In this document: piece after piece, positions 1 to 21,113 of the stretch
How the letters are laid out: every line of letters starts with the position of its first letter
Position numbering within the stretch: the stretch's first letter is position 1
Source of the DNA: a virus
Strand: one strand, 5' to 3'
Virus record (IMG/VR): IMGVR_UViG_3300036826_000026
Span: 1 to 23,044 of that record
DNA: 23,044 bases
Notes under the pieces: generated by a model
The model's input: the letters and a program-made list of their open reading frames with translations, nothing else
Database searches by the model: none
Told to the model about the DNA's origin: nothing
Translations under genes and position numbers: made by a program

Positions 1-123
1 AAACCACAGAAACAGGCCGTCGCGATCGCGCTCGACGTGGCGCGGCGAAGCGGCGCGAAAATTGCGCCCAAGAGGCGCGGCGGGATAGATAACTTGCGAC
101 CGGGAGATTACCGGAGACGGTGA
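1..123 (+). CDS. C-terminal end of a small conserved phage protein (5' cut by window edge)
   Basis: Frame 1 is open from the first base for 40 codons and stops with TGA at 121-123, so the start lies before the window. The visible peptide is basic and contains KQAVAIALDVARRSGAKIA, which resembles the KQ-AIAL-A pattern of small phage proteins of the DUF6496 type. Those are of unknown function and often sit near portal and head genes. The next gene starts on the last base of this stop (TGATG), so the two are translationally coupled. The assignment rests on one short motif. That it is coding is fairly sure from the overlap and from the run of sensible codons. Confidence 0.55.
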   Translation, partial: KPQKQAVAIALDVARRSGAKIAPKRRGGIDNLRPGDYRRR

Positions 124-425
124 TGCCCAAGAGTCTCGACGAGTTGATCTCTGGAGAATATCGCCGAGCGGGCGAGGAGGCGTTGCGTTTTCTCGGGAGT
201 CAGCCGCGGGCCGCTTCGGAAATGATGAGAACTCAAATGCAGCGGGCGCTGGATATCATCAACGCGCAGAGTGGAATACCTTGGGCGCGCTCTGAGTTCC
301 GTGGAGGTCCGTGGGTTCAAGGATTTACGGGTGTTGTTCCACTCTCGACGTATCCGTGGGGCCAGTCGATGGATCGGTACACTGTTCCCGAGGCTATGCT
401 AGGACAGAACTGGTGGGAGAGATAA
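123..425 (+). CDS. Hypothetical phage protein, 100 aa
   Basis: The ATG at 123 shares its A with the upstream TGA; a GTG at 120 is an in-frame alternative but gives no better context. The protein begins MPKSLDELISGEYRRAGEE and has an amphipathic helical N-terminal half (to about residue 50). The second half is rich in Gly, Pro, Trp and Tyr and ends NWWER. I recognise no domain. Position between a DUF6496-like gene and the IKHPGAL-type gene, ahead of scaffold and capsid, suggests a head-region accessory protein. The stop TAA is one base from the next ATG, and a GGGAGAG ribosome site lies inside its last codons. Confidence 0.7.
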   Translation: MPKSLDELISGEYRRAGEEALRFLGSQPRAASEMMRTQMQRALDIINAQSGIPWARSEFRGGPWVQGFTGVVPLSTYPWGQSMDRYTVPEAMLGQNWWER

Positions 426-426
426 G

Positions 427-618
427 ATGGCTGACAAGTGGATCCAAGGCGCTATCAAGCATCCCGGAGCGCTTCATCGGCAGCTTGGGGTACCACAGGG
501 CCAGAAGATACCAGCGAGTAAACTTTCTGCGGCGGCGAAGAAGGGCGGCACGATTGGTCGCCGCGCTCGACTCGCGCAGACGCTCGCACATCTCAGACCC
601 GGTGGTTACAAGGGTTAG
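427..618 (+). CDS. Small conserved phage protein, KWIQGAIKHPGAL type
   Basis: This is a 63-residue basic protein. Its N-terminus, KWIQGAIKHPGALHRQLGVP, followed by IPASKL, KKGG, a GRRARLAQTL helix and a C-terminal GGYKG, matches a motif set common in small phage and prophage proteins of unknown function encoded close to portal and capsid genes. GGGAGAGATAAG precedes the ATG and provides a good ribosome site. Family knowledge gives no biochemical role. Its conservation and constant position in phages suggest a structural or assembly accessory. No membrane segment or signal peptide is visible. Confidence 0.75.
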   Translation: MADKWIQGAIKHPGALHRQLGVPQGQKIPASKLSAAAKKGGTIGRRARLAQTLAHLRPGGYKG

Positions 619-728
619 TAGGACTCCGCCTTTGGCGGTTCGTAGGCACCAACGACAAAGGTGCAGCGCTCGTCGAGGGCGAAACCTCGACTACGTAGCC
701 ACAACGATACTGTGGAAGGGAAGGTAAA
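619..728 (+). promoter_or_regulatory. Non-coding leader with two hairpins before the scaffold gene
   Basis: This 110-base stretch is the longest gap in the otherwise tight left arm, and I see no convincing gene in it. It holds CCGCC-TTT-GGCGG at 626-638 and GTCGAGG-GCGAAA-CCTCGAC at 672-691, then a purine-rich ribosome site (AAGGGAAGG) before ATG 729. Neither hairpin is followed by a T-run, so they are poor intrinsic terminators. A promoter or an RNA-processing or stability leader for the scaffold-capsid genes is plausible. I could not pick out reliable -35/-10 boxes. Confidence 0.35.
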
Positions 729-1541
729 ATGGCAGACGAAAGACCAATCGAGCAGCCTACTTCACAGGAGCTGTTCAGCCAGGCTGTGGCACCACCGCTT
801 CCGGTGGCACCAGAGCCAACTCCACCTTCAGCGGCACCAGCCGCGCCGGTTCAAGGGGAACTTCCCTTGGGCCAACCACCCCAGCCTCCGGAGGGGGTGG
901 GTATTCCTTCGTGGAGATTGAAGGAGGAGTCCGACGCGCGACGTGCAGCAGAGGAGCGGATACGGGAACTCGAAGGGCATCTTCAGAGGGTCGCGGCGCA
1001 TCTACAGGCGCAGCAGCCTCAGCAGAAGCCAGACTTCTTTCAGAACCCGGATCAGGCTACTCAGGAGATGATCTTGCGGACATTGGCGCCCTATGCTGAA
1101 GAGCAGCATAAGGTGTCGATGTATAATAGCAAGATGATCGCCTCGGCTGTGCATGGCGCAGAGGAGGTTGATAAGGCGGAAGAGGCTTTCTTGAAGGCCC
1201 GTGAAGAACAGACTCTCGATGTCGCGGATTATGAGCGAGTGGTGCAGTCGCCGAACCGCTATGACGCGGCGGTGCAGTGGTACAGACGCCAAAACGTCTA
1301 TGCTGCTGTAGGTGATGATCCAAACGCTTGGTTTGAGCAACAACTCGAGGCACGGATGGCTGACCCTAAGTTCCAGGCCACCGTGCTTGAAAAGATCCGC
1401 GGAGGTGCTGCCACTCGACCCGGAACAGTAAGCATTCCGCCATCGCTCTCCAAAGTCACCGCGGCTGCTGGAAACGGCGAGTTTACGGGGGACTTGAGCG
1501 ATCCTAGCTTGTGGGCCTACGCAATGGGTCCGAAGCGTTAG
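729..1541 (+). CDS. Probable capsid scaffolding protein
   Basis: The protein has 270 residues. The first 60 or so are Pro/Ala/Gln-rich and disordered-looking. A charged coiled-coil-like helix (about 68-98, with EESDARRAAEERIRELEGHL) and an acidic alpha-helical middle follow. The C-terminal third is less charged and ends WAYAMGPKR. Composition, predicted helicity and a position immediately upstream of the major capsid gene are the usual signature of tailed-phage scaffolds, which shape procapsid assembly and then leave or are cleaved. No protease motif is visible. The start is supported by AAGGGAAGG six bases upstream. The stop TAG overlaps the first base of a strong hairpin. The call is based on position and composition rather than on a sequence motif. 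Confidence 0.65.
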   Translation: MADERPIEQPTSQELFSQAVAPPLPVAPEPTPPSAAPAAPVQGELPLGQPPQPPEGVGIPSWRLKEESDARRAAEERIRELEGHLQRVAAHLQAQQPQQKPDFFQNPDQATQEMILRTLAPYAEEQHKVSMYNSKMIASAVHGAEEVDKAEEAFLKAREEQTLDVADYERVVQSPNRYDAAVQWYRRQNVYAAVGDDPNAWFEQQLEARMADPKFQATVLEKIRGGAATRPGTVSIPPSLSKVTAAAGNGEFTGDLSDPSLWAYAMGPKR

Positions 1542-1575
1542 ATCGGTACGATACGGTTTCCGTATTATACCGATC
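1541..1575 (+). promoter_or_regulatory. Long palindrome/hairpin before the capsid gene (element A)
   Basis: The arms GATCGGTACGATACGG (1541-1556) and CCGTATTATACCGATC (1560-1575) flank a TTT loop. In RNA all positions pair except one C/A mismatch next to one G-U pair. The inner 15 bases, ATACGGTTTCCGTAT, recur in the other arm at 20087-20101 as the exact reverse complement. The element starts on the last base of the scaffold stop codon and ends 22 bases before the capsid ATG. There is no T-run, so a simple intrinsic terminator is unlikely. An operator, a promoter element or an RNA-processing/stability site are alternatives. Confidence 0.6.
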
Positions 1576-1597
1576 GAGTTAGGAAGGGGTTGCAGCT

Positions 1598-2752
1598 ATG
1601 GCTGTGACAACCATTGAGACCAACAACAAACTTATCCGCTTTACACAGGAGATCGCGCGGGAGTTTGTTCGCGAGAATATGTTCTCGCCCTACATGGGTG
1701 AGAGCCTGACCTCTATCATCCGCCTTCGAAATGAGTTGAAGGCCGGTGGCGAGGACATGAACATCCCCATAGTGACTCGACTCACGGGTCAGGGGGTCGC
1801 CACACAGACCCTCGTGGGGAACGAAGAGAAGATCGACAACTACGGAATGCGTCTGCGAATAGAGTGGGCGCGCAACGCAGTTGTCTCGACGAAGGCCGAG
1901 GTTCAAAAGGACTCGGCGGATATCTTCGGCGAGGCGAAACCCCTGCTCAGTGATTGGGGCAAGGAACTTCAGCGGGATGAGATCATCGCCGCGCTGATGG
2001 CACTCCCGACGGAGACCCTTCCAACTTCCTCGGGTGGAGTCAGGGTCAACGGTATCCAATACGATCTGGCTACAGCTACTCAGCGTGGTCAGTGGCAGCA
2101 GGATAACGGTGATCGAGTGCTGTTCGGTGCCACTACTGCCAACCGCGTCAACTCAGCGGTGGCGACCGACCACGCCAACTCACTGTTGAACGTGGACACT
2201 ACTAACGACAAGTTCACTGCGACCAATCTCAGTCTGTTGAAGCGGGTTGCGATGAATGCGAATCCTCGCATTCGGCCTTATCGAACTGAGGATGGGTACG
2301 AGCACTACGTGTGCTTCGCGGGCACCAACACCTTCAGAGACCTCAAGTCTTCTCTGGAGTTAATCAACAAGGACGCACGGCCCCGCGAGCAGGCGGGTCT
2401 CCGCAATCCCATCTTCCAAGATGGCGATCAGATCTATGACGGTGTGATCGCGAGGTTAGTGCCGGAGATCTCGAGCTTTGTAACGAACGTGTGGACTTCG
2501 TTACTTACCGCGGGTGCTGCTTCGGCGCGGGTCGAGCCAGTGTTCCTCTGCGGCCAACAGGCCGTGGTGTTCGGGTGGGGCCAGATGCCAAAGCCTACGT
2601 TCCGTAAAGAGGACGACTATGGCTTCATCACTGGCACTGGCATCGACATGGCCTATGGTGTGGCAAAGATGTTCAAAAAGCATCCCAACACCGGGACCAT
2701 CTTGAAGCAGTGGGGCGTTGCCACTGGCTTCTTCGCGTCGGCGAGCGACTAA
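1598..2752 (+). CDS. Major capsid protein, N4 gp56/DUF4043-like
   Basis: This 384-residue protein should form the icosahedral shell. The N-terminal part has ARE-FVRENMFSPYMG. A segment around residues 55-90 has IPIVTRLTGQGVATQTLVGN followed by EEKIDNYGMRLRIEWARNAV. This pattern (LTG-G----L-GNEE, then a basic beta strand) is the hallmark of the N4 gp56/DUF4043 family of HK97-fold capsid proteins. No N-terminal delta domain or prohead protease gene is visible, which fits a separate scaffold. GGAAGGGG nine bases before the ATG is a strong ribosome site, as expected for the most abundant virion protein. It is followed at once by a decoration-like gene and then a probable terminator. Confidence 0.85.
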   Translation: MAVTTIETNNKLIRFTQEIAREFVRENMFSPYMGESLTSIIRLRNELKAGGEDMNIPIVTRLTGQGVATQTLVGNEEKIDNYGMRLRIEWARNAVVSTKAEVQKDSADIFGEAKPLLSDWGKELQRDEIIAALMALPTETLPTSSGGVRVNGIQYDLATATQRGQWQQDNGDRVLFGATTANRVNSAVATDHANSLLNVDTTNDKFTATNLSLLKRVAMNANPRIRPYRTEDGYEHYVCFAGTNTFRDLKSSLELINKDARPREQAGLRNPIFQDGDQIYDGVIARLVPEISSFVTNVWTSLLTAGAASARVEPVFLCGQQAVVFGWGQMPKPTFRKEDDYGFITGTGIDMAYGVAKMFKKHPNTGTILKQWGVATGFFASASD

Positions 2753-2773
2753 GGCCAGGAAAGGAGCATCAAA

Positions 2774-3166
2774 ATGGTAACCTCACTTAATCAAGGCGTG
2801 CCAGCGCGAGACTTTGGCTATGAGGTTTCGCAGTATATCGCCGGTCGTATCACAGCACTTGCTTCTGGCGCGGCCGTCAACGTGAAGATTGGTACTGTTC
2901 CAGCAGGATCAATCATCACCGGGATCTTCTCCCGAGTACAGACGGCTATCACTGGGGGTACTCCGGTGCTGGCACTTGGAACCGCTAGTGGTGGTTCGCA
3001 GGTTCAGGGTACGATGGCTGAGGCGGCCGGAAGCGAGTTGGTATTTCCGGCCGCGTCTCTGACTCTGCCACTTGCGGCGGATACTGACATCTGGGCGGGT
3101 ATCTCTGGCGGCGCAACTGCTGGGGATGCCTACATTGCTGTTGGGTTCATCAAACCTGTGGCCTGA
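2774..3166 (+). CDS. Small beta-rich structural protein, probable head decoration/stabilisation
   Basis: The protein has 130 residues, is low in charge and rich in Gly, Ala, Thr and Val. Repeated short beta-strand patterns are visible, such as VKIGTVPAGSIITGIFSRVQ and LPLAADTDIWAGISG. Proteins with this IGT-PAG-IITG pattern directly after a capsid gene occur in many phages and are usually small virion components that decorate or stabilise the shell. Direct evidence for capsid binding is not visible. AAAGGAG eight bases before the ATG supports the start. A probable terminator directly downstream would group it with the capsid gene as a high-expression unit. Confidence 0.6.
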   Translation: MVTSLNQGVPARDFGYEVSQYIAGRITALASGAAVNVKIGTVPAGSIITGIFSRVQTAITGGTPVLALGTASGGSQVQGTMAEAAGSELVFPAASLTLPLAADTDIWAGISGGATAGDAYIAVGFIKPVA

Positions 3167-3175
3167 CGCTAACTG

Positions 3176-3212
3176 GGGGAGAGGATAACCTCCACCTTTC
3201 CCCTCTCTTTTT
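3176..3212 (+). terminator. Probable intrinsic terminator after the decoration gene
   Basis: GGGGAGAGG (3176-3184) pairs with CCTTTCCCC (3195-3203), nine pairs including one G-U, around a 10-base loop. TCTC and a run of five T (3208-3212) follow. The T-run begins four bases after the stem, slightly further than ideal. It lies in the 58-base gap between the decoration gene and the next gene, whose AAGGAG ribosome site starts right after it. A partial terminator here would lower expression of the tail genes relative to capsid. Confidence 0.5.
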
Positions 3213-3224
3213 AAGGAGAATGAA

Positions 3225-3587
3225 ATGGCGAAAGTCACATGGCAAGGTGAATCAGAGACCCCGAACCTCAAGGAGACAACGAGATTTGGGGTGGCGTTTG
3301 AAAAGGGCAAGGCTGTCGAGGTTGAAAATGAGGTTCAGCTGCGGAAACTCTCCACCAATCCTGCGTTCAAGGTGGAGGACTACGAGGCCACAGAACCGAA
3401 ACTCGTACCGGCGGTAACTGAAGTGTCGGTACAGCACCCGGTACCGAAGCCCGGAGAGCCGATGCCCACGGAACCAGCTCCGCCAGAGACGGAGCCGAAA
3501 CTGTCTCCGGTGCCGAGGATGGTCCATAGAGACATTCGAGCTGGTTCATCTTCTGCGGCGAACCCTGTGCCAGCGAGTAAGAAATGA
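3225..3587 (+). CDS. Hypothetical head-region protein with Pro-rich tail
   Basis: The 120 residues fall into two parts. Residues 1-55 form a small beta-like domain (KVTWQGESE, then TRFGVAFEKGKAVEVENEVQ, then NPAFKVEDYE). It resembles short phage proteins with the pattern tW-G-----FG--F-KG--V-V--------NP-FKV, encoded between capsid and connector genes. Residues 56-120 are rich in Pro, Glu and Val and probably disordered. AAGGAG lies six bases before the ATG at 3225; an out-of-frame ATG at 3220 is better ignored. The last four bases overlap the next gene (ATGA). A role in head completion is an inference from position only. Confidence 0.65.
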   Translation: MAKVTWQGESETPNLKETTRFGVAFEKGKAVEVENEVQLRKLSTNPAFKVEDYEATEPKLVPAVTEVSVQHPVPKPGEPMPTEPAPPETEPKLSPVPRMVHRDIRAGSSSAANPVPASKK

Positions 3588-10538: not shown

Positions 10539-10871
10539 ATGTATACTGGATCACTTCCAACTGCATCAATCCACGGGACCTGGCTGGAGAATGTGGAGAT
10601 TTGGAGCACCGATGACGATACACTGATGGATCTCTCAGATGTAGTCGAGATAGTTCTTGAGTTACGTGACCCGGCTACAATGTTTCCCGAATTAACTCTG
10701 AGAATGTCTAGCGGAGATATCACTATCCCTTCACAAGGGATCATCCAGTGGCGGGCTGAGGTAGGAGCTATGGGGATGCTAGACTCGAAGCTGTATGAGG
10801 CTATTATGCTGCTGGAAACATCAAGTGATACAGTTCCGTTGTTTCTAGGTTCAATCTCAATAGTGGAGTAA
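10539..10871 (+). CDS. Hypothetical virion-region protein, 110 aa
   Basis: The protein is acidic and beta-rich. It has WLENVEIWSTDDDTLMDLSD, a hydrophobic strand VVEIVLELRDP, SGDITIPSQGIIQW and a C-terminal PLFLGSISIVE. Proteins of this size with the order 'D-S-V-EI-LELRDP ... G-I-------W----M--L---LYE' occur between fibre and lysin genes in phages and resemble small beta-sandwich virion parts. I do not recognise a named family. GGGGGCACGA precedes the ATG. Only three bases separate its stop from the endolysin ATG. Confidence 0.65.
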   Translation: MYTGSLPTASIHGTWLENVEIWSTDDDTLMDLSDVVEIVLELRDPATMFPELTLRMSSGDITIPSQGIIQWRAEVGAMGMLDSKLYEAIMLLETSSDTVPLFLGSISIVE

Positions 10872-12364: not shown

Positions 12365-13588
12365 TTAGCCTTCGAGACGGGCTTCGCGCGGCGCTGGCTT
12401 GTAGCCAGTAAATTTATTGCCTTCAACAGTGACCTCGATCATATGGGACTTTACCATTATTTCGAGGCAGCGCATGATCGAGTGAGCTGGAACTCGCTCG
12501 CGAAGAAAGTGGAGGATACGGTGCTCGGCAACGGGCCTGTTCTCTTTTGAATAAATAGTCCATACATAGTTTAGGGCTTCATTCATAGCAGCGGAGTCGC
12601 CGCCGCTAACCATTGACTTGAAGATATCGGGCATGTAGCTCTCGGCTTCGATGAGCCAGTTCAAGGCCTCGCTGTAGTGCTCGAGGGCTATCACTTTGTT
12701 GTTTGAGCGGGAGATACTGGCAATCATACATAGTTTTAGGAGGTGCGCTACTCGACGAGAATTGTAGAATTGGAGTTTCTGATGAGTGGGTTCAGGAGCA
12801 CACTTGTTCTTGATCCAGGCTTTTATGGCTTGCGCGGCCGGAGTCGTAAAAGACATCTGCCCGAACTGGAGTGCGATTGTCTTGAGGTCGTGGAGTAGGT
12901 CGTTGTAGAGTCGGCCTGTAAGAAGCGTGGTACTCTCATCTACGAATGGATCTTTAATGAGACGCTGACCAGAGTAGATAAGGATAGTTCGAGAGATGAA
13001 GCCTTGATCCCATCCTCCAGCAGGCATGATCTCATTCAGGTAGGATGGGGTACAAGCGCCTAATAGGTTTATCTGGGGCGAAGTAATTTTGATGTGAAGG
13101 TCTTTACCTCGTCGTTTCTGATCGACTGTGAAACCGTCGTAGATATCGGTTAGGTTATTCATGAGTGCTGTGTCCCATGCGGGAATGAGCACTCCAAGTT
13201 CGCGGGAGATCACTGTGAGAGAATTAAATTCTATGAATGGAGGATCTCCCATGAGAACGAGACGGCGCACGGACTCGTTGAGGGCGTCGATCATACTGGC
13301 TGTGGTCATGTCCGAGGGGCCGATCTTGAGATCGGGGACCGCGCGAAGTATTATTTCTCCGAGGTGGATGGCCTGACCTTTACCTATCCCCGGAGGACCG
13401 ACTAGAAGCGTAAAAAGGCTCGGATATAGGTCTGAGCCCATAGTCCGAACCCATATTTTACGTTCCATCGCTGCTGCGATAAAGGCTATCGCTACCCACT
13501 TACGGAAGATTTGTGGAGAGGGTAGGATCTCGGTGTATTCCTCGTATGCCTCTATCCAACTGCTAAGCCGCCTGTCTCCGGCGCCCAT
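12365..13588 (-). CDS. DUF3987-like P-loop ATPase, probable replicative helicase
   Basis: The protein has 407 residues. An N-terminal helical segment (WIEAYEEYTEILPSPQIFRK, then WVAIAFIAAAMERKIWVRT) precedes a Walker A loop GPPGIGKGQ at 64-72. FIEFNSLTVISRELGVLIP and INLLGACTPSYLNEIMP lie at 120-185, with a helical C-terminus. This layout fits phage and prophage ATPases of the DUF3987/YfjI group, which act as primase-helicase components. The position after lysine 70, normally Ser or Thr, is Gly, so Mg2+ coordination may differ. It overlaps the end of the polymerase by 26 bases, so the two are translationally coupled. No clear ribosome site precedes ATG 13588. Confidence 0.72.
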   Translation of the reverse strand: MGAGDRRLSSWIEAYEEYTEILPSPQIFRKWVAIAFIAAAMERKIWVRTMGSDLYPSLFTLLVGPPGIGKGQAIHLGEIILRAVPDLKIGPSDMTTASMIDALNESVRRLVLMGDPPFIEFNSLTVISRELGVLIPAWDTALMNNLTDIYDGFTVDQKRRGKDLHIKITSPQINLLGACTPSYLNEIMPAGGWDQGFISRTILIYSGQRLIKDPFVDESTTLLTGRLYNDLLHDLKTIALQFGQMSFTTPAAQAIKAWIKNKCAPEPTHQKLQFYNSRRVAHLLKLCMIASISRSNNKVIALEHYSEALNWLIEAESYMPDIFKSMVSGGDSAAMNEALNYVWTIYSKENRPVAEHRILHFLRERVPAHSIMRCLEIMVKSHMIEVTVEGNKFTGYKPAPREARLEG

Positions 13589-15053
13589 CTGGCCACTTCG
13601 ATAGTCCGTAGGGGTTATCTTTGTCGGCCTTACCCCAATTCCAGCCCACTTGTATTTCGACGGGAACTACGAACTTTCGACTGGCCTCGAGTTCGAGGGG
13701 GACACGCATAGCAGATAGAACCTGCGGTACGATCTCATTCTCTTTCTCCTCAGGATACTGTATAAGGATTGAGTCGTGGCCCTGTAAAAGGATCTGGATT
13801 AGGTTCAGCCGCCACAACGCAAGCATAGCGAAATTCATCTCGTCTGCGGTCATAGATTGACCGAGAAAGGCTACCGCCTGTTTGAGAGTGTCACGGTCGT
13901 CGCGCCTGCCGAAGAACCAACGCTTGCGGCCGAAAGGCGTAACGAGATTGCCGATTTCAAGGAGCTGCTGCGCGACCCACTCATGGAGGCGCTGGATCGC
14001 GGGGAACGTATTGAAGTAGAGAGCTTGAAAATCTTTGATTATAGACTGTTCTATCTTTGTGTGTTTTGCCATCTCGAAGGGTGAACCAAGGTAATTTGTA
14101 CCGTGGCCGAGCACCTTGCACATATGCCTGAGAGAGTGATGACGGTAATATGGCTGATCAGCAATGGCTCGATCCTTTTTAAGATCTCCAGTCCAGGGCA
14201 GTTCGGGTCTGGACATTCTGGAAACAGAGGTGTGAAGATCTCCTGACTCGCAGGCGTCAAGGTATTTAGGATCTCGAAAGACGTTCCAGCAGAGGGCTCC
14301 GACATTACGACTGTCCGCTTGTTCGAGGTCGATGTTCGCGAATTTCATACCTGGGTCGGCGATGAAGATGCGTCGTAAGCGTTCTTCAATATTCTGGAGA
14401 TTACCTCCAGTACCGAAATCATTGAGGCTGCTTGAGAAGCGCCCTGTTGTAGTTCCCCCGATGTTATAGGATGTTCTGATGCGTCGATCGCTGTCAACCT
14501 TTGTCTCAAGAACTCCGATCTTTTTTCCAAAGTCTCTAAGAGCAAGGATATGAGCAATAACTGGCCGGGCGATAAAGTGAACTTGGAGTCTTTCGAGGGC
14601 GTCTCTGTTGACCGTTCGAGCCATCTCGCCGCGGTCATTCCGCTTACGGATTTCAGGCAAGCGGAGGATGTCGTAAAGTAGAGCCGCGACAAGGCTGTTA
14701 GAGCGCCACGCTTTAGTTTTTGCGGTGTTACGAAAGTCTGCATATCCTATTCCCTCGTGAACGATACGATAGAGATTCCGCTCAAGGCGCTCACTGTCGG
14801 CACGGTAAGTGGTAATAGCTCGTTGGCGCTCTGTCTCGTCGATCAGCACTCCGCGAAGGTTCATCTCCAGCACGGGTGCTTGAAGTGATAGCGACAGGGC
14901 GTAGGTACCGCCGGTCAGATTATCTAACTGCGGTAGTGTTTGTTCGAGGACTTCAAGGGTCACACAACAGTCAAGACCATTGTAAATCCAGAGACGTTCA
15001 GTCTCGGACTTCGGTTCGCCGGGGCGGAGCCCTTGAGTGTTGTAGATTTTCAT
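13563..15053 (-). CDS. Family A DNA polymerase carrying only the last exonuclease motif
   Basis: I chose ATG 15053 (496 aa) because it overlaps the previous stop as ATGA; an upstream in-frame start at 15074 is less likely. The polymerase motifs are clear. Motif A is NIDLEQADSRNVG with Asp242. Motif B is RHMCKVLGHGTNYLG with Arg309, Lys313 and Tyr321. Motif C is GHDSIL with His426 and Asp427. TTGRFSS and NLQNI are also present. Residue 317, at the place of E. coli Phe762, is His, and the usual motif C HDE is HDS. The N-terminus has Exo III (YNGLD, Tyr24-Asp28) but no Exo I or II; those are on the UDG gene two positions upstream. It is shorter than complete exo-pol enzymes for that reason. Confidence 0.9.
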   Translation of the reverse strand: MKIYNTQGLRPGEPKSETERLWIYNGLDCCVTLEVLEQTLPQLDNLTGGTYALSLSLQAPVLEMNLRGVLIDETERQRAITTYRADSERLERNLYRIVHEGIGYADFRNTAKTKAWRSNSLVAALLYDILRLPEIRKRNDRGEMARTVNRDALERLQVHFIARPVIAHILALRDFGKKIGVLETKVDSDRRIRTSYNIGGTTTGRFSSSLNDFGTGGNLQNIEERLRRIFIADPGMKFANIDLEQADSRNVGALCWNVFRDPKYLDACESGDLHTSVSRMSRPELPWTGDLKKDRAIADQPYYRHHSLRHMCKVLGHGTNYLGSPFEMAKHTKIEQSIIKDFQALYFNTFPAIQRLHEWVAQQLLEIGNLVTPFGRKRWFFGRRDDRDTLKQAVAFLGQSMTADEMNFAMLALWRLNLIQILLQGHDSILIQYPEEKENEIVPQVLSAMRVPLELEASRKFVVPVEIQVGWNWGKADKDNPYGLSKWPDGRRRQAA

Positions 15054-15364
15054 CGGAGATGAGCGTTGAACCATTGGCCCTTGGAAGGGGCCAAAAGGAA
15101 GGCTACGAACTGTTCTTCGGAGCCGGGATAATCGTAGGAACCGCCCCGCACAAACTGAACAGTTATGATACCGCCAACGTGATAGCCTATAGCACGAATG
15201 GCGCTGCTCGCGACCGGAACTGTGATCTCTGTCTTGAGTTCGTCCATGAACTGTGCGCCCCCGCCTTCAGCTATGTCCTCGAGAAAGGCACTGGTGAAGA
15301 CGCGGCCCTCAGCAGCAGCGGTAGCGCGGAGAACTACGCCAATGCCTGCGATCAAGGGAGTCAT
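15050..15364 (-). CDS. KTSC-domain protein lying between the two halves of the polymerase
   Basis: The protein has 104 residues. The C-terminal half (about 52-104) contains SSAIRAIGYHVGGIITVQFV, then GGSYDYPG, an FLLAPSKGQWFN segment and a terminal HLR. This matches the KTSC domain (PF13619), first described at the C-terminus of some lysyl-tRNA synthetases and thought to bind RNA or nucleic acid. The N-terminal half is Ala/Gly-rich and unassigned. AAAGGAGG seven bases before the ATG is among the strongest ribosome sites in this arm, so it starts independently and then couples the polymerase by ATGA. It interrupts what in related phages would be one UDG-exo-pol reading frame. Confidence 0.8.
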   Translation of the reverse strand: MTPLIAGIGVVLRATAAAEGRVFTSAFLEDIAEGGGAQFMDELKTEITVPVASSAIRAIGYHVGGIITVQFVRGGSYDYPGSEEQFVAFLLAPSKGQWFNAHLR

Positions 15365-15388
15365 ATTAGTCCTCCTTTTCTATAGAAG

Positions 15389-16414
15389 CTAATCCTCTTT
15401 TTTAATTGTTCCTTTGTGTTTAAGTCGAATTCCGAGTTTCCAGGCAGACTCGTCTGTGTAGACTGAGCCCAGGTAGTCCAGAGATTTTGGGCTTTCGGGC
15501 ATGAGGGCGTGATGCAGTAGCATAGTATCATGCCGAGCATTAGTGACTGGAATACCATAGGTTTTCCACAGTCTGGACATATCGAAGATACCATTCTGAA
15601 AGACCTTCTCGATGGGGGAGGCGAGGACTTTGCGGACCCACTTCCACGCGGCCAGTTCAGCCTCGATTGATCCCCAGTAGTTACCACCTAGTTTGCGGAG
15701 GTCCTCGAACGGAACGACGAGGGCAATATCTATCGCCGGAGCAAACCCGATGCAAGTAATACGCTCTCCGCGTGTTTCGATATCAACAGCGAGTCTTCTT
15801 GCCGGGGCAATGTGCTCGATGTAGAAGCGGTCGAGGTCGCCGAGGATGGGTTCGGTGTAGATGGAGCGTTTGGGTCTGCGAATCTCGGGATACTCGGACT
15901 CTCGACGGGCTTTTTGGAGGTCGAGGACTGTGACGTGCCGCTCGCCGTATCCTCCTTGGAGAATGTAGGAAGGATGGAAGGTTGGGAGGACTTTTTTTCC
16001 TGCCAGTACGGGGGAATTTGCGACTGCCCCACGAAGTTTCGATATTCTACCGTCACGTAGTATTGCCCAACAGGCAGTTCCCCCGAGGCACACAATGACA
16101 TTTGGATTAACTTCAATAAGTTCTCGATAAAGTCTGTCGAGTTCGGGGAGAAATTCATCACGGACGTACTTGCCAGATGATAACGGCGGGAGCGCATGGC
16201 GGACCTCCTTGCGAGTGGCGCATAGGTTCTCGATCTTGTTCGTGGGTCGGGGACGCAAGTTAAACACGTTGGTTAGGTAGCACTCGGCTCGAACTATTCC
16301 GGCATCGGTCAGCATGGAGTTGAGCTGCCAACCAGCGGGACCGACAAAGGGCATCCGCTGGCGTTCTTCCGCTTCTCCCCAGGCCTCTCCAACCAGGGCG
16401 ATTTTGTGTTTCAT
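15389..16414 (-). CDS. Uracil-DNA glycosylase fused to a truncated 3'-5' exonuclease domain
   Basis: The protein has 341 residues. Residues 1-170 match the UDG superfamily: GEAWGEAEERQRMPFVGPAG at 9-28, YLTNVFNLRP at 46-55, VIVCLGG at 106-112 and the active-site loop PTFHPSYIL with HPS at 147-149. No four-Cys iron-sulfur set is evident. Residues 185-341 are a DnaQ-type proofreading fold: Exo I AVDIET (Asp211, Glu213) and Exo II FQNGIFDMSRLW (Asn274, Asp278). Then comes HDTMLLHHALMPESPKSLDY, and the chain ends at TIKKED before Exo III. The missing Exo III is at the N-terminus of the polymerase gene. UDG-polymerase fusions are known, for example in phage SPO1. Its ATG overlaps the upstream stop. 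Confidence 0.85.
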   Translation of the reverse strand: MKHKIALVGEAWGEAEERQRMPFVGPAGWQLNSMLTDAGIVRAECYLTNVFNLRPRPTNKIENLCATRKEVRHALPPLSSGKYVRDEFLPELDRLYRELIEVNPNVIVCLGGTACWAILRDGRISKLRGAVANSPVLAGKKVLPTFHPSYILQGGYGERHVTVLDLQKARRESEYPEIRRPKRSIYTEPILGDLDRFYIEHIAPARRLAVDIETRGERITCIGFAPAIDIALVVPFEDLRKLGGNYWGSIEAELAAWKWVRKVLASPIEKVFQNGIFDMSRLWKTYGIPVTNARHDTMLLHHALMPESPKSLDYLGSVYTDESAWKLGIRLKHKGTIKKED

Positions 16415-16752
16415 GCAATATCTCTTTGATTTAGTTCTTCAAGTCGGAGTTTTAGGAGTCTGTTCTCCTCTTTGAGGCTGTTTATTTCCGGGGCGCTTCT
16501 CCGCTCGGAGTCATGCCAGCCTCTCGTATAATCAATTCCCACTATTATGCGTTCCATCTTGGAAGTCCACTTATCGTAGTCGGACTGAGTGAATTCGTCT
16601 CCCGTAGCCATATATCTCGACACGAACTTTCTGTTGCAGAAAGCGGGTCTCACTGTTCCCATGTCATCTATTATAGCCTTTATAAGTCTTCCTCCCTTTT
16701 CTTTGAACTCCCTGATTATCCTTCCCTGCTTCCACGTATCAAAGGTAGTCAT
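16411..16752 (-). CDS. Hypothetical protein with C-terminal leucine-zipper-like helix
   Basis: The protein has 113 residues. The first 80 have WKQGRIIREFKEKGGRLIKA, IIDDMGTVRP and a segment with many aromatic and charged residues (SDYDKWTSKMERII). The last 30 (INSLKEENRLLKLRLEELNQ) form an obvious coiled coil with leucines at heptad spacing, so it probably oligomerises or binds a partner. GAGGAG eight bases before ATG 16752 supports the start. It overlaps the UDG-exo gene by ATGA. Function is unknown; coupling to UDG-polymerase suggests a replication accessory. Confidence 0.6.
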   Translation of the reverse strand: MTTFDTWKQGRIIREFKEKGGRLIKAIIDDMGTVRPAFCNRKFVSRYMATGDEFTQSDYDKWTSKMERIIVGIDYTRGWHDSERRSAPEINSLKEENRLLKLRLEELNQRDIA

Positions 16753-16753
16753 G

Positions 16754-17509
16754 TTACTTACTCCTCTTTAGGTTTATCACGTTCTTGTCAGTTCCCTTGG
16801 GCTTCGTTGGCTTTAATATGGTATCTATCCGAACGATCATATTACATAGGGCTTCCCTGATAACTGCGAGACAGGCTGGATTATTCTCATAGAATTTATT
16901 GAGATTAAACTTATTTAGGTCTCCGGCTATCGACCGGGCAAAGTCGAGGTTGTAGATTATTGACTCGGATGAAGGATACTTTACTGGTCCCTTTCTCTTA
17001 TAGAAGTCTTTGTCGGGCGCGGTTCTGACGGTGGCCTCGAATTCCTCCTCACTCATCTTACCTACGGCTCTGATGTTTTTGGCGAGATTTTTGTCGATGT
17101 TCTGAGAGGCTAGTGTTGGCACAGTTTCGGAAATCGGGGTATTTTTTACCCCGATTTTTGTTGAGGGGCGTCCTGTTGCCAGTGTAGGCACAGTTTCAGC
17201 CGACGCGGGGTAATTTTTACCCTGCGTTGCACCGGGGTAATTTTTACCCCGGTGCTCCAGTGGAACACTTGTATCTCCACCGCCTCTAGCTAATCCCACT
17301 GTGCGACGCTGTTCTTCTATCATTTCGGCCAGGCGCCGTTCGGCCCGGCGCTGGATTTCTATGGCATCGAGTTCGAGTGTTTTGTCCTTGGCGAGACGGG
17401 CATATTCTCGCATAGCCTTACCCTTGTCACGGATGTCTTTGACTTCATCAACGGCCTTTGCCTCAGCAAGGGCGCGCTTTGCTGCCTCATACTTAACGAG
17501 TTCAGTCAT
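16754..17509 (-). CDS. Conserved phage protein with internal GKNYP/ETVPTLA repeats
   Basis: The protein has 251 residues. The N-terminal helical domain ([20 protein letters not shown], then [20 protein letters not shown], then [16 protein letters not shown]) and the later [20 protein letters not shown] segment are typical of a prophage protein family of unknown function found near ParB-type and replication genes. The central linker (about 75-140) carries GKNYP twice and SETVPTLA or AETVPTLA twice, an internal duplication. Its DNA holds three near-perfect palindromes (17131-17255). The start overlaps the previous stop (ATGA). A DNA-binding or partition-linked role is only inferred. Confidence 0.7.
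17131..17255 (+). repeat. Cluster of three GGGGTAA/TTACCCC palindromes inside a CDS
   Basis: Palindrome 1 is AAATCGGGGTA-TTTTT-TACCCCGATTT (17131-17157, 11-base perfect arms). Palindrome 2 is ACGCGGGGTAA-TTT-TTACCCTGCGT (17203-17227, one mismatch). Palindrome 3 is GCACCGGGGTAA-TTT-TTACCCCGGTGC (17229-17255, 12-base perfect arms). Centres of 2 and 3 are 27 bases apart; 1 is about 71 bases from 2. A flanking direct repeat AGTGTWGGCACAGTTTC occurs at 17112-17128 and 17181-17197 (69-base period). On the coding (-) strand palindromes 2 and 3 read GKNYP. Confidence 0.9.
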
Positions 17510-17820
17510 TTTTCTGGGACTCCCTGATTGCGTCTATTCTCGATCTCCTTTTCGAGCAATAATTTTGTTTTCTCAGCTTCGTGCTGCCAGCCGATGCTCT
17601 GACTGAGCAATTTATGTGCCTTATCCAATTCTGATCGCAGCCGCTCGATCTCACTATTGTAAGCCTTCATCCTGATTTCGTGCTCCTTTGAAAGAGAATG
17701 GCAATGGCTGGCGTGCTGTTCGCCATCATCGCGGATAACTTTCCGTAGCCGCTTGATCTCGTGTCGCTGTAGCTCGACTTTTCGTCGTAACTGTATGATC
17801 TCGTCATCCTTCTCAGTCAT
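17506..17820 (-). CDS. Coiled-coil hypothetical protein
   Basis: The 104 residues are almost entirely heptad-rich helix: [20 protein letters not shown], then a central [15 protein letters not shown], then [20 protein letters not shown] and [16 protein letters not shown]. It is strongly charged, with no membrane segment. It likely acts as a dimeric rod or scaffold. The His/Cys cluster near residue 38 (HASHCH) could bind metal but is too short to call. It overlaps the upstream gene by 8 bases and the downstream gene by ATGA. No family is recognised. Confidence 0.6.
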
Positions 17821-18034
17821 GTTCGATTGCTCGCCTCAATGACACTATTATCCGGTCTCCAGGTTTGAATTCTGGAGGGTTACCAAAGCGAATAGAGATG
17901 TCGTCTATTGTGACCCACCATGCTGGCTCTCCATAAGTTTCTATGGTTTTATCTGGATCATTTGGGTCTCGGCGTACGTTTAAGAGCCGTTTACGCTCTT
18001 CAACTTTACTGACGGTAGCTGTAAAACTATACAT
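17813..18034 (-). CDS. Small hypothetical protein, OB- or SH3-like beta barrel
   Basis: The 73 residues alternate as beta strands: MYSFTATVSKVEERKRLLNV, AWWVTIDDISIRFG, then FKPGDRIIVSLRRA. The pattern of five short strands with a GD turn before a final basic strand suggests an OB or SH3 barrel, but no family is recognised. GGAAAAG lies a few bases before the ATG. Stop and next start overlap by 8 bases. A nucleic-acid-binding role is possible but unproven. Confidence 0.55.
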   Translation of the reverse strand: MYSFTATVSKVEERKRLLNVRRDPNDPDKTIETYGEPAWWVTIDDISIRFGNPPEFKPGDRIIVSLRRAIEHD

Positions 18035-18053
18035 CAGTCTTTTCCGTGGCTGG

Positions 18054-18149
18054 TCATTTTCCGATCCACATAAAGAGGAACAAGAATATCAAGACCACAA
18101 TCACAAAGATGGTGACGTTTATAGCGATGTCTCGGCTTTTAGTTTCCAT
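18054..18149 (-). CDS. 31-residue single-span membrane peptide
   Basis: ATG 18149 opens a 31-codon frame ending in TGA at 18054-18056. It has a polar N-terminus METKSRDIAIN, a strongly hydrophobic segment TIFVIVVLIFLFLFMWIG (about 13-30) and a final Lys, a typical small transmembrane peptide. GGAG lies seven bases before the ATG, inside the end of the ParB-methylase gene, whose TAA stop lies within the first codons (11-base overlap). The next gene starts 19 bases after its stop, so it fills what would otherwise be a gap. Function is unknown; small phage membrane peptides can act in lysis control, exclusion or membrane anchoring of replication. Confidence 0.6.
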   Translation of the reverse strand: METKSRDIAINVTIFVIVVLIFLFLFMWIGK

Positions 18150-19443
18150 AAGCATCTCCGACAGCCTTCAAGCGGCGGGCTCGTCGAAGGGCGTCTCGGG
18201 CCAGAGCTGCGAACTCTGGATTGATCTCGAGCCCGAGACAATGCCTTGTACCAAGCGATTCAGCCGCTCGCAATGCACTTCCACTACCACAGGTGGGGTC
18301 GAGCATAACAGTGTTCTGGTCAACAAGCATCGAGAAGAAGTGACGCAGCATCGGTTCGGGTTTTTCAGACATGTGACGGTCCCGTACTGTCGGAGAGTGG
18401 TAAGCATTAGCAACAGCTCGAACAATTTTACGGTCTCCGCGGCTCCCAAGTAGACAGGTTTCGTAGATCTGTCGCGGTCCTCGTTCAGGATCTGGAAGGA
18501 TACCAACTCCATCGGACTTCATCCATATGAGGGGTTGTGGATTGATCTCCCACCCGATCATTTCGAGGGCTCGAGCGGTGGACTCGTAGAGGCGCTGACT
18601 GCCTTTTCTCATGGCAAACCAGAACATAAGATGGGCGCTCTGTGCCGTGAGTCGCTTAGTGGCGATCTCCAAAGACGACATGAGCTGTTGCCATGTTTCA
18701 TAGGTGTCAGTGTATCCCCCATGAGAACTTGCGCCGCCCTGATTAAACGAGTCTGACTCTATGCCGTAGGGGAAATCACAGTGGAAAAAATTGAACCTAA
18801 TAGCCATATCGAGGTGGACCCATTCACGAAAATCCGCAGTTAGGATGGTTTCCTCCTGTTTCTCAGCGACCTGAACTCCACCGAGGGAACTATGGAGCTT
18901 GTCAAGTATGCTTTGGTCGCGGCGCTCGATTGCTCGCCGGACTATCCCTGCGGCCGTAGAGAGCTTTGGTGCCTCTAAGACCATTTTATTGCCGAGGGAA
19001 AGTTCCTCGCCGAGTTGGAGCATAGTACCAGTGTGCTGTGGGGATAGGCCTATGGATCTGGCGGTGTCCTCTTGTGTCCATTCGAGGTTACCGGAGAGGC
19101 GGAGGGCGTGATACTCGCGGATTGCCGAGACTTGATCTTGCCAAGAGATGTCCTGGCGCTTTATGTTCTCTTCGAGTTCAATCTCTCGGAGACGGCCCGG
19201 CTCGAGTTCGTCGAGGTACTGGACCGGGATTGTTTGCCAACCGAGCTTGGTGCAAGCGGCGTAGCGCCGCTCGCCGGTGACAAGCTCCAACCCCTCGCGA
19301 GTGACCACGAGGGGATGGATGAGGCCGAGACGACGGATCGAGTCAGCGAGTTCGTCGATCTTTGTGAGTTCGCGCCGCTGCCGTTTTTCCCGACTGACAG
19401 TTATGCTGTCAAGCGGAATAATGTGGAAAGTGCCAGAAGTCAT
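18139..19443 (-). CDS. ParB-domain / adenine-specific DNA methyltransferase fusion
   Basis: The protein has 434 residues. The N-terminal ParB/Spo0J-like domain (about 5-100) has IPLDSITVS, an LADSIRRLGLIHPLVV segment and GERRYAA (57-63). A helix-turn-helix-like stretch follows (WTQEDTARSIGLSPQHTG, about 122-139). The C-terminal DNA methylase (N6_N4_Mtase type) has motif IV as CDFPYG (223-227, DFPY in place of DPPY) and later motif I MLDPTCGSGSA (380-390) with LEINPEF. The order IV then I indicates the beta class. Such fusions are common in phages and may modify phage DNA against host restriction. Start ATG overlaps the upstream stop. The last 11 bases encode the start of a membrane peptide. 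Confidence 0.87.
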   Translation of the reverse strand: MTSGTFHIIPLDSITVSREKRQRRELTKIDELADSIRRLGLIHPLVVTREGLELVTGERRYAACTKLGWQTIPVQYLDELEPGRLREIELEENIKRQDISWQDQVSAIREYHALRLSGNLEWTQEDTARSIGLSPQHTGTMLQLGEELSLGNKMVLEAPKLSTAAGIVRRAIERRDQSILDKLHSSLGGVQVAEKQEETILTADFREWVHLDMAIRFNFFHCDFPYGIESDSFNQGGASSHGGYTDTYETWQQLMSSLEIATKRLTAQSAHLMFWFAMRKGSQRLYESTARALEMIGWEINPQPLIWMKSDGVGILPDPERGPRQIYETCLLGSRGDRKIVRAVANAYHSPTVRDRHMSEKPEPMLRHFFSMLVDQNTVMLDPTCGSGSALRAAESLGTRHCLGLEINPEFAALARDALRRARRLKAVGDAYGN

Positions 19444-19634
19444 GCTGCGGCGTCCTCATTATCTGGAAGCCACGGATCTTCGTCTGAGAACCACCCGGCG
19501 AACTCATTGAGGATGGCACAGTCATCGTTGCTTCCAGCTGTAAGAAGGGCCGCTTTCTTCGAGCGCCATGAACCCCCCTCGTTAACGAGTTTGGTGAGAA
19601 GCTCGAAGAAATCATCATATTCACTGTTTGTCAC
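19440..19634 (-). CDS. Small helical hypothetical protein, GTG start
   Basis: I place the start at GTG 19634 because AAGGAG stands seven bases before it; a longer frame would run back inside the previous gene. The 64 residues begin MTNSEYDDFFELLTKLVNEG and continue with SWRSKKAALLTAG and NDDCAILNEFAGWFSDED, an acidic alpha-helical protein without a membrane segment. It overlaps the upstream gene by 14 bases and the ParB-methylase start by ATGA. No family is recognised. Coupling to the methylase suggests they are made together. Confidence 0.55.
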   Translation of the reverse strand: MTNSEYDDFFELLTKLVNEGGSWRSKKAALLTAGSNDDCAILNEFAGWFSDEDPWLPDNEDAAA

Positions 19635-20049
19635 TTGAAGACTCCTTTTTCGGCGGGGCGTAGAGATCGTTGAGTTGATCGTGGAGTTCTTCGAGCTTGG
19701 TTTCACTCTTGATGCAAGCGTTGTTGAGGCGTTCGATCTCGGAGGTGAGTTCGGTGGTGCGTTTCATGTAGTCTGATTTGATTTCGTTGGCCTTGCGCTC
19801 GATCTTCTCGAGTCGGTTCTTGACCTCGACGATCAGTTCGTCGATCTGTTGGGTGGGTAACTCGGCGAAATTCTTTACTGCACTCACTGTTAACCCTCCC
19901 AACTCCTTGATCCGATGGTGAGGGGGAAGAAACTCTTCGGGCGGCGGTCCACCTTGACTAGAGAGTTCACGGAGAGAGTTCTTGATGTCGCCCTCGATTT
20001 GTTCGAGGATGTTAGGGACGATCTTTGGAAGTGGAAGTTTGGGGCTCAT
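19621..20049 (-). CDS. Coiled-coil hypothetical protein, 142 aa
   Basis: Residues 1-35 have IVPNILEQIEGDIKNSLREL, then a Pro-rich hinge with PPHHRIKELGG. Residues about 58-130 are a continuous charged coiled coil (IDELIVEVKNRLEKIERKAN, TELTSEIERLNNACIKSETK). The tail is Ser/Lys-rich. GAGG precedes ATG 20049 by about nine bases. The 5' untranslated stretch carries hairpin element B (20076-20112). It probably oligomerises; nothing indicates enzymatic activity. Confidence 0.62.
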   Translation of the reverse strand: MSPKLPLPKIVPNILEQIEGDIKNSLRELSSQGGPPPEEFLPPHHRIKELGGLTVSAVKNFAELPTQQIDELIVEVKNRLEKIERKANEIKSDYMKRTTELTSEIERLNNACIKSETKLEELHDQLNDLYAPPKKESSSDKQ

Positions 20050-20075
20050 TCTGGGAATCCTCTATGGGTTTACAC

Positions 20076-20112
20076 TGACCCATATCATACGGAAACCGTA
20101 TTGTATGGCTCA
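20076..20112 (-). promoter_or_regulatory. Palindrome/hairpin element B, matching element A
   Basis: On the - strand TGAGCCATACAATACGG, TTT, CCGTATGATATGGGTCA forms a stem with 14 of 17 positions paired. The 15-base core ATACGGTTTCCGTAT is identical to element A at 1551-1565 in the direction of transcription. The element begins at the TGA stop of the upstream Cys-rich gene and ends 26 bases before ATG 20049. Its 3' arm can instead pair with ACCCAT at 20064-20069 (stem ATGGGT/ACCCAT at 20064-20083), next to the ribosome site, so two exclusive folds exist. Confidence 0.6.
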
Positions 20113-20295
20113 GTTAGTCGTTTCGCGTTTACTGCCCTGTTCCCACTCTCCACACCAGTTAGATTTGGCGAGAAGAGGAAAGTGGCTGGTTATCATAGCG
20201 CCCGCGACACCAGTTATCTGCGGGGGATAGCGCCGACAGACGATAACATTGTCGGAGCCAGGAATGCTAAATCTGCAGTTCTCACACGTTTCCAT
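20110..20295 (-). CDS. Small Cys-rich (zinc-ribbon-like) phage protein
   Basis: I take ATG 20295 as start because GGAGAGACCG precedes it and the upstream extension of the frame is low-complexity Arg/Pro/Ser lying in a structured leader. The 61 residues start METCENCRFSIPGSDNVIVC, with CxxC at 4-7. They continue RRYPPQ, SHFPLLAKSNWCGEWEQG and a basic tail. The CxxC-----CRR-PP---------P----WCGE pattern is a common small phage and prophage protein with four Cys that could bind zinc. Its function is unknown. Its stop codon lies at the base of hairpin element B. Confidence 0.65.
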   Translation of the reverse strand: METCENCRFSIPGSDNVIVCRRYPPQITGVAGAMITSHFPLLAKSNWCGEWEQGSKRETTN

Positions 20296-20417
20296 CGGTC
20301 TCTCCAGTAGCGGCGGTCTTATGAGCGGACTCTGCCGCCGCCCTACCCTGGAAGGCGAGGACCGGGCGAAGTCAGGTGACGCCCGGTCCCCTCTCAACCA
20401 CTACGTCCGGGAGTCAA
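20296..20417 (-). promoter_or_regulatory. Structured intergenic leader with two GC-rich hairpins
   Basis: This 122-base gap has no convincing gene. It contains GGACCGGGCG/CGCCCGGTCC (20359-20368 with 20380-20389, 10 perfect pairs, 11-base loop) and GCGGCGG/CCGCCGC (20310-20316 with 20335-20341, 18-base loop). Neither is followed by a T-run in the direction of transcription. It follows the DUF669-like gene stop and precedes the Cys-rich gene. RNA stabilisation, a factor-dependent stop or a leader RNA are possible; it matches no riboswitch I can recognise. Confidence 0.4.
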
Positions 20418-20846: not shown

Positions 20847-20882
20847 TCTGAACCTCCATGTGTACGGATGGCAGGTGTGGAT

Positions 20883-21113
20883 TTATTCGCAGGCAGTGTC
20901 GATGTTACCGAGCGCGGACTCGATAGAGTCTTTGGCCTCGTTCAAGGCCCCTATGGCCGCCCCCATTTTCTCTCCTTTCTCGCCTTGTTGCATTCCCTCC
21001 GGTAGGTTATCTAAGGCTTCCTGCTCCTCATCCATGATCTCCTCAACTATTGCGCAGGCATCGCTGAGTGCAGAAGCAGCCACTTGCAGTTTCTTCCGAC
21101 GTTCATCGTTCAT
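20883..21113 (-). CDS. Small conserved acidic phage protein, MNDxRRK type
   Basis: The 76 residues start MNDERRKKLQVAASALSDAC and continue with EEIMDEEQEALDNLPEGMQQ and a C-terminal helix AIGALNEAKDSIESALGNID. This is a frequent conserved phage and prophage hypothetical (pattern RRK-L--A------A---IE-I-DEEQEA-DNLPE--Q-G--G), helical and acidic, with no known function. It starts within the HNH gene's stop (ATGA). It has neither a membrane segment nor catalytic residues. Confidence 0.75.
   Translation of the reverse strand: MNDERRKKLQVAASALSDACAIVEEIMDEEQEALDNLPEGMQQGEKGEKMGAAIGALNEAKDSIESALGNIDTACE

What the first reader, a model, noticed from the sequence alone, without database searches (positions are those of the whole stretch)
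1541..1575. Structured palindrome shared by both arms, placed right after a stop codon and 22-26 bases before the next start
Element A here and element B (20076-20112) have an identical 15-base core ATACGGTTTCCGTAT in the direction of transcription, a conserved C/A mismatch at the same place, and outer arms of different sequence that still pair (GATCGGTA/TACCGATC against CCATA/TATGG). Both begin on a stop codon and end 22 and 26 bases before an ATG. Conserved shape with changed outer sequence points to a structured RNA or DNA element rather than chance. Candidates are a processing or stability site, an operator for a dimeric regulator, a hairpin promoter of the N4 vRNAP kind, or a mobile mini-palindrome.
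Basis: partly seen in the sequence, partly recalled or inferred. Interest (0 to 1): 0.72.

Follow-up and report, generated by a model that had tools for sequence, protein, structure and literature searches.

The report
Phage operator for ParB-methyltransferase fusion
The two matching palindromes look like DNA landing sites for a protein that the same phage makes (a ParB-type DNA-binding switch fused to a DNA methyltransferase), and protein and site seem to change together from phage to phage, which suggests a DNA target for a class of phage protein whose role is unknown.

Summary
The window is a phage contig; elements A (before the capsid gene) and B share a 15-bp core (0.05 expected). Of 80 capsid-gene relatives, 52 have such a palindrome in the same slot, 24 an intrinsic terminator, 3 neither, 1 is truncated. 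A second copy sits upstream of a gene for a ParB_N-HTH-N6/N4-methyltransferase fusion (ParBMT; 31 of 35 testable loci). Within a genome the inner palindromes of A and B match (89% against 30% between genomes, p=2e-5); between phages they differ; an outer box GRTAYGKMY is shared. Across 20 ParBMTs, the 8-residue window that best follows the inner half-site is the HTH recognition helix (0 of 3000 permutations). Residue 135, equivalent to ParB R173, pairs R/K with G and Q/H with A at -6; residue 140 pairs R with C at -3. Mismatches show no G-U preference, so this is mainly a dsDNA site, though A-slot copies also keep a full hairpin. Best reading: parS/KorB-operator-like sites of ParBMT at late genes and its own operon, probably for transcription control. 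Binding is strongly inferred; the function is only inferred.

The parts
1541..1575 (+). Element A: 35-bp palindrome before the major capsid gene (centre 1558)
   Evidence: same slot in 52 of 80 capsid relatives
1551..1565 (.). Inner palindrome of A (ATACGG-TTT-CCGTAT), the proposed HTH target
   Evidence: genome-specific sharing; helix association
20077..20111 (-). Element B: second palindrome, upstream of the ParBMT operon (centre 20094)
   Evidence: B slot filled in 31 of 35 testable ParBMT loci
20087..20101 (.). Inner palindrome of B, identical core to A
18139..19443 (-). ParBMT: ParB_N + HTH + N6_N4 methyltransferase fusion, the proposed binding protein
   Evidence: Pfam PF02195 and PF01555 above cut-off; Noc/ParB and N6/N4 methyltransferase folds
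19021..19044 (-). Codons of ParBMT residues 134-141 (SPQHTGTM), the variable part of the recognition helix
729..1541 (+). Scaffold-like gene whose stop codon touches A
   Evidence: position as in Pam1, where the gene before the capsid gene is annotated scaffolding protein; no family match
1598..2752 (+). Major capsid gene downstream of A
   Evidence: phrog_334, E 8.4e-53
20110..20397 (-). Small WCGEW gene whose stop codon overlaps B
   Evidence: the same motif precedes many B sites
19621..20049 (-). 142-aa gene directly after B, first of the run that leads to ParBMT
   Evidence: no family above its cut-off

Best explanation
The palindromes are double-stranded DNA binding sites (parS- or KorB-operator-like) of ParBMT, a phage-encoded ParB_N-HTH-methyltransferase fusion. 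Each 35-bp site has a conserved outer box (GRTAYGKMY, inverted at both ends) and an inner inverted repeat of about 6 bp per arm around a 3-bp, mostly A/T centre. The HTH recognition helix reads the inner half-site: residue 135 with base -6, 136 with -5, 140 with -3. When the helix changes, the copies in that genome change with it. The outer box is read by something conserved, perhaps the methyltransferase half. Sites lie before the capsid gene, before ParBMT's own operon, and in single genomes before the endolysin gene or a packaging block. The likeliest action is transcription control: bound ParBMT acts as a repressor or elongation roadblock for late units and for its own operon, possibly with nucleotide-gated sliding as in KorB and with local methylation. 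Shown here: the site family, genome-specific sharing, covariation with the helix, the fold. Inferred: physical binding, the transcription effect, nucleotide use, methylation.
For: Inner sequence shared by A and B of one genome, not between genomes (0.889 against 0.296, p=2e-5). The recognition-helix window is the best of 426 windows (partial r 0.54; 0 of 3000 permutations reach it anywhere in the protein; best window outside 120-150 r 0.34, FWER 0.24). Top residue-base pairs of 2976 tested: 140R with -3 C, 135R/K with -6 G, 136Q with -5 A (a pair in the other domain ties with the third). Residues 135 and 140 correspond to ParB R173 and N178, which contact parS; R173 bonds guanine 1 and the Noc Gln bonds adenine 1 (PMC7383237 passages). 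Rules carry over to 9 distant genomes (0.615 against 0.299, p=0.0016; without G037 p=0.008). The B site precedes ParBMT in 31 of 35 testable loci. Three genomes without a ParBMT match have no site-model hit. No sense-strand G-U bias. Terminators hold the A slot in 24 of 80 relatives.
Against: No binding was measured. Single-column tests over all 303 variable columns are not significant; over the 117 most variable they give FWER 0.032 (135/-6) and 0.095 (140/-3). Some rules fail: L190 (Lys with T), G039 (Lys with T), G049 and G034. 4 of 35 testable ParBMT loci show no B site; 3 capsid slots have neither element nor terminator. Proteins are related, so permutations are not fully independent, although overall identity was removed. 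A-slot outer arms pair more than half-sites alone require. The order of contacts implies half-sites turned the other way from parS. 3 of 12 distant genomes gave no site-model hit. No promoter or RNA end data.
Confidence: 0.72

Rival explanations
1. The element is primarily an RNA hairpin (processing, stability or attenuation) between the scaffold and capsid cistrons, standing in for the intrinsic terminator found there in other phages; the shared core is secondary.
For: A-slot copies keep long pairing (outer arms 0.81 against 0.51; mean sense MFE -18.7 kcal/mol), lie right after a stop codon, and are replaced by terminators in 24 of 80 relatives.
Against: No G-U excess (A: 24 GU, 15 AC, p=0.20; B: 13 GU, 44 AC); both centre polarities; B-slot copies pair poorly outside the core and fold slightly better on the antisense strand; covariation with a protein helix is unexplained; no Rfam match.
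Confidence: 0.12
2. The sites are operators of another phage or host regulator, and ParBMT's helix changes with them by shared ancestry only.
For: Other small genes lie between B and ParBMT, and the outer box is not explained by the helix code. Sites exist in genome parts without a known partner.
Against: The association remains after overall identity is removed and peaks in the helix, not elsewhere in the protein; the base preferences match ParB/Noc contacts; in some phages B abuts ParBMT itself (L193, L198-L202).
Confidence: 0.1
3. The palindromes are mobile or copied mini-elements (REP-like) that spread within each genome.
For: Copies within a genome share the inner sequence; both centre polarities AAA and TTT occur.
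Against: Slots are the same across phages with unlike inner sequences; outer boxes of copies in one genome are hardly more alike than between genomes (0.55 against 0.45); a mobile element would not track a protein helix.
Confidence: 0.02

Closest known systems
ParB-parS and Noc-NBS (Spo0J, Caulobacter ParB, Bacillus Noc)
   Same: ParB_N fold plus HTH by sequence and model; palindromic DNA site; specificity residue at the same helix position with the same R-G and Q-A preference (passages)
   Different: Methyltransferase in place of the C-terminal dimer domain; sites are 35 bp with a constant outer box and a variable inner part; the order of contacts suggests half-sites facing the centre; placed before late genes and the own operon, not shown to act in partition
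KorB and its operators on plasmid RK2
   Same: A ParB-type protein that acts as a gene regulator at palindromic operators scattered over a replicon (PMC11790492, passages)
   Different: The KorB operator motif was not found in the assembled records; no KorA partner was looked for; methyltransferase fusion; drifting specificity
Stoperators of Cluster A mycobacteriophages
   Same: Sites spread over a phage genome, specific to the phage type, whose repressor specificity diverges with them; most block transcription elongation (PMC6550527, passages)
   Different: Those are 13-bp, mostly one-way sites, up to about 30 per genome, with an immunity repressor; here palindromes, few per genome, and no sign seen of an immunity repressor role
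ParB-CTPase fold fused to N6_N4 methyltransferase in phages (PNAS 2025 survey)
   Same: Same domain pair, reported as enriched in phages, role unknown (PMC12704722, passages)
   Different: No cognate site is named in the passages seen; here an HTH lies between the two domains and a site family goes with it
Intrinsic terminator between scaffold and capsid genes
   Same: Occupies the same slot in 24 of 80 capsid relatives
   Different: The element lacks a T run and its inner part is a genome-specific shared sequence

Membership tests
ParB/Noc/KorB proteins (for ParBMT) | N-terminal ParB-CTPase fold | tested here: met
   PF02195 44.6 bits, cut-off 26.3; Foldseek 7nfu Noc E 6.2e-08; phmmer Spo0J 1vz0 E 4.1e-15
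ParB/Noc/KorB proteins (for ParBMT) | Nucleotide-binding motifs (GERRxxA, ENxxR; motif names recalled) | tested here: met
   G57 E58 R59 R60 A63 and E92 N93 I94 K95 R96 invariant in 18 sequences
ParB/Noc/KorB proteins (for ParBMT) | Central HTH that reads a palindromic site | tested here: met
   By covariation only, not by binding:
ParB/Noc/KorB proteins (for ParBMT) | C-terminal dimerization domain | tested here: not met
   The C-terminal half matches N6_N4 methyltransferase from about residue 195 on
ParB/Noc/KorB proteins (for ParBMT) | CTP binding, hydrolysis and sliding | not testable with these tools
   Needs biochemistry; in the survey some such fusions bound ATP (PMC12704722, passages)
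parS / NBS / OB (for the element) | The canonical site sequence | tested here: not met
   Only one assembled record (G004) holds the exact 14-bp parS core, beside a B element; no NBS or OB within 1 mismatch in the 40 assembled records
Stoperators | Several genome-specific sites whose sequence diverges together with the DNA-binding protein | tested here: met
   (few per genome)
Stoperators | Site-bound protein stops elongating RNA polymerase | not testable with these tools
   Inferred from position and from terminators in the same slot only
Known structured RNA families | Match to an Rfam model | tested here: not met
   No match at gathering thresholds
Intrinsic terminators (for element A) | G+C-rich stem followed by a T run | tested here: not met
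   A is not among the terminator-like sites of 1-3300
N4-type hairpin promoters | Phage virion RNA polymerase gene plus short hairpin promoters | not tested
   No RNA polymerase family was seen among the 20 window proteins searched; the rest of the genome is not in the window

The most novel reading that the evidence does not exclude
The palindromes are loading sites for a nucleotide-gated DNA clamp that carries a methyltransferase: ParBMT loads at its phage-specific site, slides along the phage DNA and marks or silences it from there, giving each phage type its own address code, much as immunity repressors do. Half-sites facing the centre would make it an inside-out version of ParB-parS.
Probability: 0.2. 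Interest if true: 0.87.

Novelty: new variant of a known kind. Interest (0 to 1): 0.72.

Why it matters
ParB-CTPase fold fusions to methyltransferases are common in phages, and the 2025 survey (PMC12704722, passages seen) leaves their role open. This finding names a likely DNA target, a three-position recognition code that can be tested by base and residue swaps, and genes under it (capsid, its own operon, endolysin in one phage, a packaging block in another). Three literature searches turned up no report of such sites (listings only; the library is limited by licence).

Tried and rejected
Rfam at gathering thresholds: no match. Relatives of the 142-aa protein after B: 12 stretches matched a pattern, none confirmed. 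The protein of 20418-20846 in isolate phages: none. Exact core in all viral contigs: 45 stretches, of which 2 are near-copies of this phage (L109, L111); the other 43 were not examined one by one and nothing is claimed for them. A generic hairpin scan without sequence found true copies but also many coding-region hairpins and was dropped for the covariance model and later the site model. Single-column association over all variable columns was not significant. Promoter scan: none in 1-3300 and chance level in 16500-23044. Whether the outer box is the methylation target: GRTATGGYT is more frequent than in shuffles in 5 of 6 ParBMT genomes tested (not G004) and not in the 3 without ParBMT, but many copies lie outside sites, so nothing follows yet. 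Isolate phages with 26-30% identical ParBMT (Mel-JY34, Desulfofustis phage; 71-74% of each record scanned) gave no site-model hit. The VIA-align second look was filled by methyltransferases, with one Noc row at Z 11.5 but rmsd 16.2, so it adds nothing on the ParB half.

Rows dropped before counts: in the A set, 4 rows that the centre-finder had wrongly taken (L023, L047, L074, L079) were removed by hand and L014 was added by hand; L013 was also left out of the outer-box model and, where two near-duplicate A rows and one B row were collapsed. In the association L186, L182 and L192 were dropped as repeats of the same helix, and L182's row had been typed one base out of register. For the window row the A element was used, for the others a B element or a copy near ParBMT. 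In the Fisher table, base -6 counts as G if either arm has G. G037 was in both the 20-protein set and the 9-genome transfer test; the figure without it is given. The transfer rules were written after I had seen some distant sites, so that test is not fully blind. The site model misses true sites whose outer box is spaced by one base differently or reads CCATA outward (for example G009 A and B, G006 A).

Full report
What is in the window. The window is one 23,044-base virus record with a rightward late arm (scaffold-like gene, major capsid protein phrog_334, head closure, tail, endolysin) and a leftward replication arm (Sak4-like annealing protein, ParB-methyltransferase, a DNA polymerase split over two ORFs, primase/helicase).

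Relatives of the capsid slot. 251 stretches encode a relative of the capsid protein and the best 80 were kept. In 52 of 80 the spacer before the capsid start holds a palindrome of about 35 bp with the same build but mostly other letters; in 24 of 80 it holds a G+C-rich hairpin with a T run (classed by pattern; one checked by the terminator scan); 3 have neither and 1 is cut off. The element ends 10-25 bases (median 22) before the capsid start in 21 distinct sequences. G005, G007 and G013, terminator-class phages, share capsid genes with the window but show no match to its ParBMT or polymerase.

A second slot and the gene behind it. A covariance model built from 16 elements and later scans found further copies in the same genomes; at the site-model threshold shuffles give 0.1 per genome. 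Some single hits may still be chance, and the model misses some true sites. The regular second slot follows a small gene ending in WCGEW and precedes the operon of ParBMT, or abuts ParBMT itself at 1-19 bases (L193, L198-L202). Of 44 ParBMT loci, 35 reach far enough upstream to be tested by my count (9 are cut near or inside the gene); 26 had a B site at first look and 5 more on a second look, so 31 of 35. Other copies precede an endolysin gene (G004) and a two-gene block ending in a terminase-like gene (G037).

Genome-specific inner palindrome. In 9 genomes with both slots on one contig the inner six bases per arm agree at 0.889 between A and B, against 0.296 for A and B of different genomes (p=2e-5); with three alike genomes reduced to one, 0.905 against 0.257 (p=0.00018). 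The outer box agrees 0.55 against 0.45, so it is common to all. The outer half-box reads GRTAYGKMY (my summary of the counts).

The protein that goes with it. ParBMT has ParB_N and N6_N4 methyltransferase domains above Pfam cut-offs. A Foldseek search with its AF2 model (mean pLDDT 74.8) finds Noc and ParB for the front half and N6/N4 methyltransferases for the back half. Its HTH has a conserved first helix and a variable recognition helix. For 20 distinct proteins, similarity of each 8-residue window was compared with similarity of the inner half-sites after removing overall identity: the top windows start at 133 and 134, at the recognition helix; 0 of 3000 and 4 of 3000 permutations reach them anywhere in the protein. 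The residue-base pairs that stand out are 140 Arg with C at -3 (8 of 10, 0 of 10 otherwise), 135 Arg/Lys with G at -6 (7 of 8, 1 of 12 otherwise) and 136 Gln with A at -5 (8 of 8, 3 of 12 otherwise; a pair in the other domain ties with this last one). Gln or His at 135 go with A (G001, L200, L201). By the motif G-K-S-R....N (my reading of the residues named in the paper) residues 134, 135 and 140 stand for ParB S172, R173 and N178. R173 bonds guanine 1 of parS, the Noc Gln bonds adenine 1, and N178 contacts parS (PMC7383237, passages). That paper was read after the association was found. Single-column tests over all columns fail.

Transfer. In 12 fetched genomes with ParBMTs 46-55% identical to the window's, 9 gave site-model hits, with G037 (4), G040 (3) and G049 (3) the clearest. 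Rules from the core set fit their sites at 0.615, against 0.299 when helices are shuffled among the 9 (p=0.0016), and 6 of 11 without G037 (p=0.008). Clear hits are G042 (Arg with G, Glu with G) and G039 at -3 (Glu with G); clear misses are G049, G034 and G039 at -6.

DNA or RNA. If the transcript's hairpin were the selected form, G-U should outnumber A-C. Over 41 elements GU is 37 and AC 59; in B slots 13 and 44. Inner pairs +/-3 to +/-6 are 84-100% Watson-Crick in both slots, but outer pairs +/-9 to +/-16 in B slots fall to 20-70%. So the symmetric half-sites, not the hairpin, are what is kept. In the A slot alone the outer arms also match each other within an element (0.812 against 0.507); there the site may double as a hairpin between scaffold and capsid cistrons, where other phages keep a terminator.

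How it probably works. From the anatomy I infer control of transcription. The A sites lie inside what looks like one transcription unit, after a stop codon, with 10-25 bases to the next start; some B sites touch the start codon, which leaves no room for a promoter downstream. A bound protein there would block elongation or cover the start region. The presence of terminators in the same slot of other phages points the same way. KorB shows that a ParB-type protein can silence genes (PMC11790492, abstract start and passages), and stoperators show that phages use elongation blocks of drifting specificity (PMC6550527, passages). Whether ParBMT binds CTP, slides or methylates near the site cannot be told from sequence. 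The order -6, -5, -3 for residues 135, 136, 140 means that the helix reads towards the centre; if parS guanine 1 lies next to its dyad, as I recall, the half-sites are inverted relative to parS. That is an inference from correlations, not a structure.

Verdict. Observation confirmed; interpretation partly right (operator, not primarily RNA). It works like a parS or KorB operator; by membership ParBMT is a ParB-fold fusion without the canonical dimer domain, and the element is not a parS sequence.

Noticed in passing
G004 record 10657-10670 (L136:10657; also L193:3444, L230:2944, same phage): An exact 14-bp core of canonical bacterial parS (GTTTCACGTGAAAC) abuts the B element, itself flanked by an outer-box-like GAGCCATA; it is the only phage with it among 334 loci, 3.15 Mb. 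Could be a second site type or a decoy for host ParB.
   Followed up: partly
L331 centres 3943 and 5986 (Clostridia MAG contig): A 26% identical ParB-methyltransferase has two copies of a different perfect palindrome (TTTGATGATTTAATCATCAAA), one centred 58 bases before its start: perhaps the same logic in a distant lineage.
   Followed up: no
window 17128-17255 (-): Repeats of CGGGGTAATTTTTACCCC-type palindromes inside the reading frame 16754-17509, a coding region with palindromic repeats.
   Followed up: no
window 13563-16414 (-): The PolA-type DNA polymerase is split over two ORFs (15389-16414 and 13563-15074) that match consecutive parts of phrog_17, with a 104-aa frame between them; the split is kept in relatives.
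   Followed up: no
G037:14959: A well-formed site lies inside a 1351-aa open frame, so sites are not confined to spacers.
   Followed up: no
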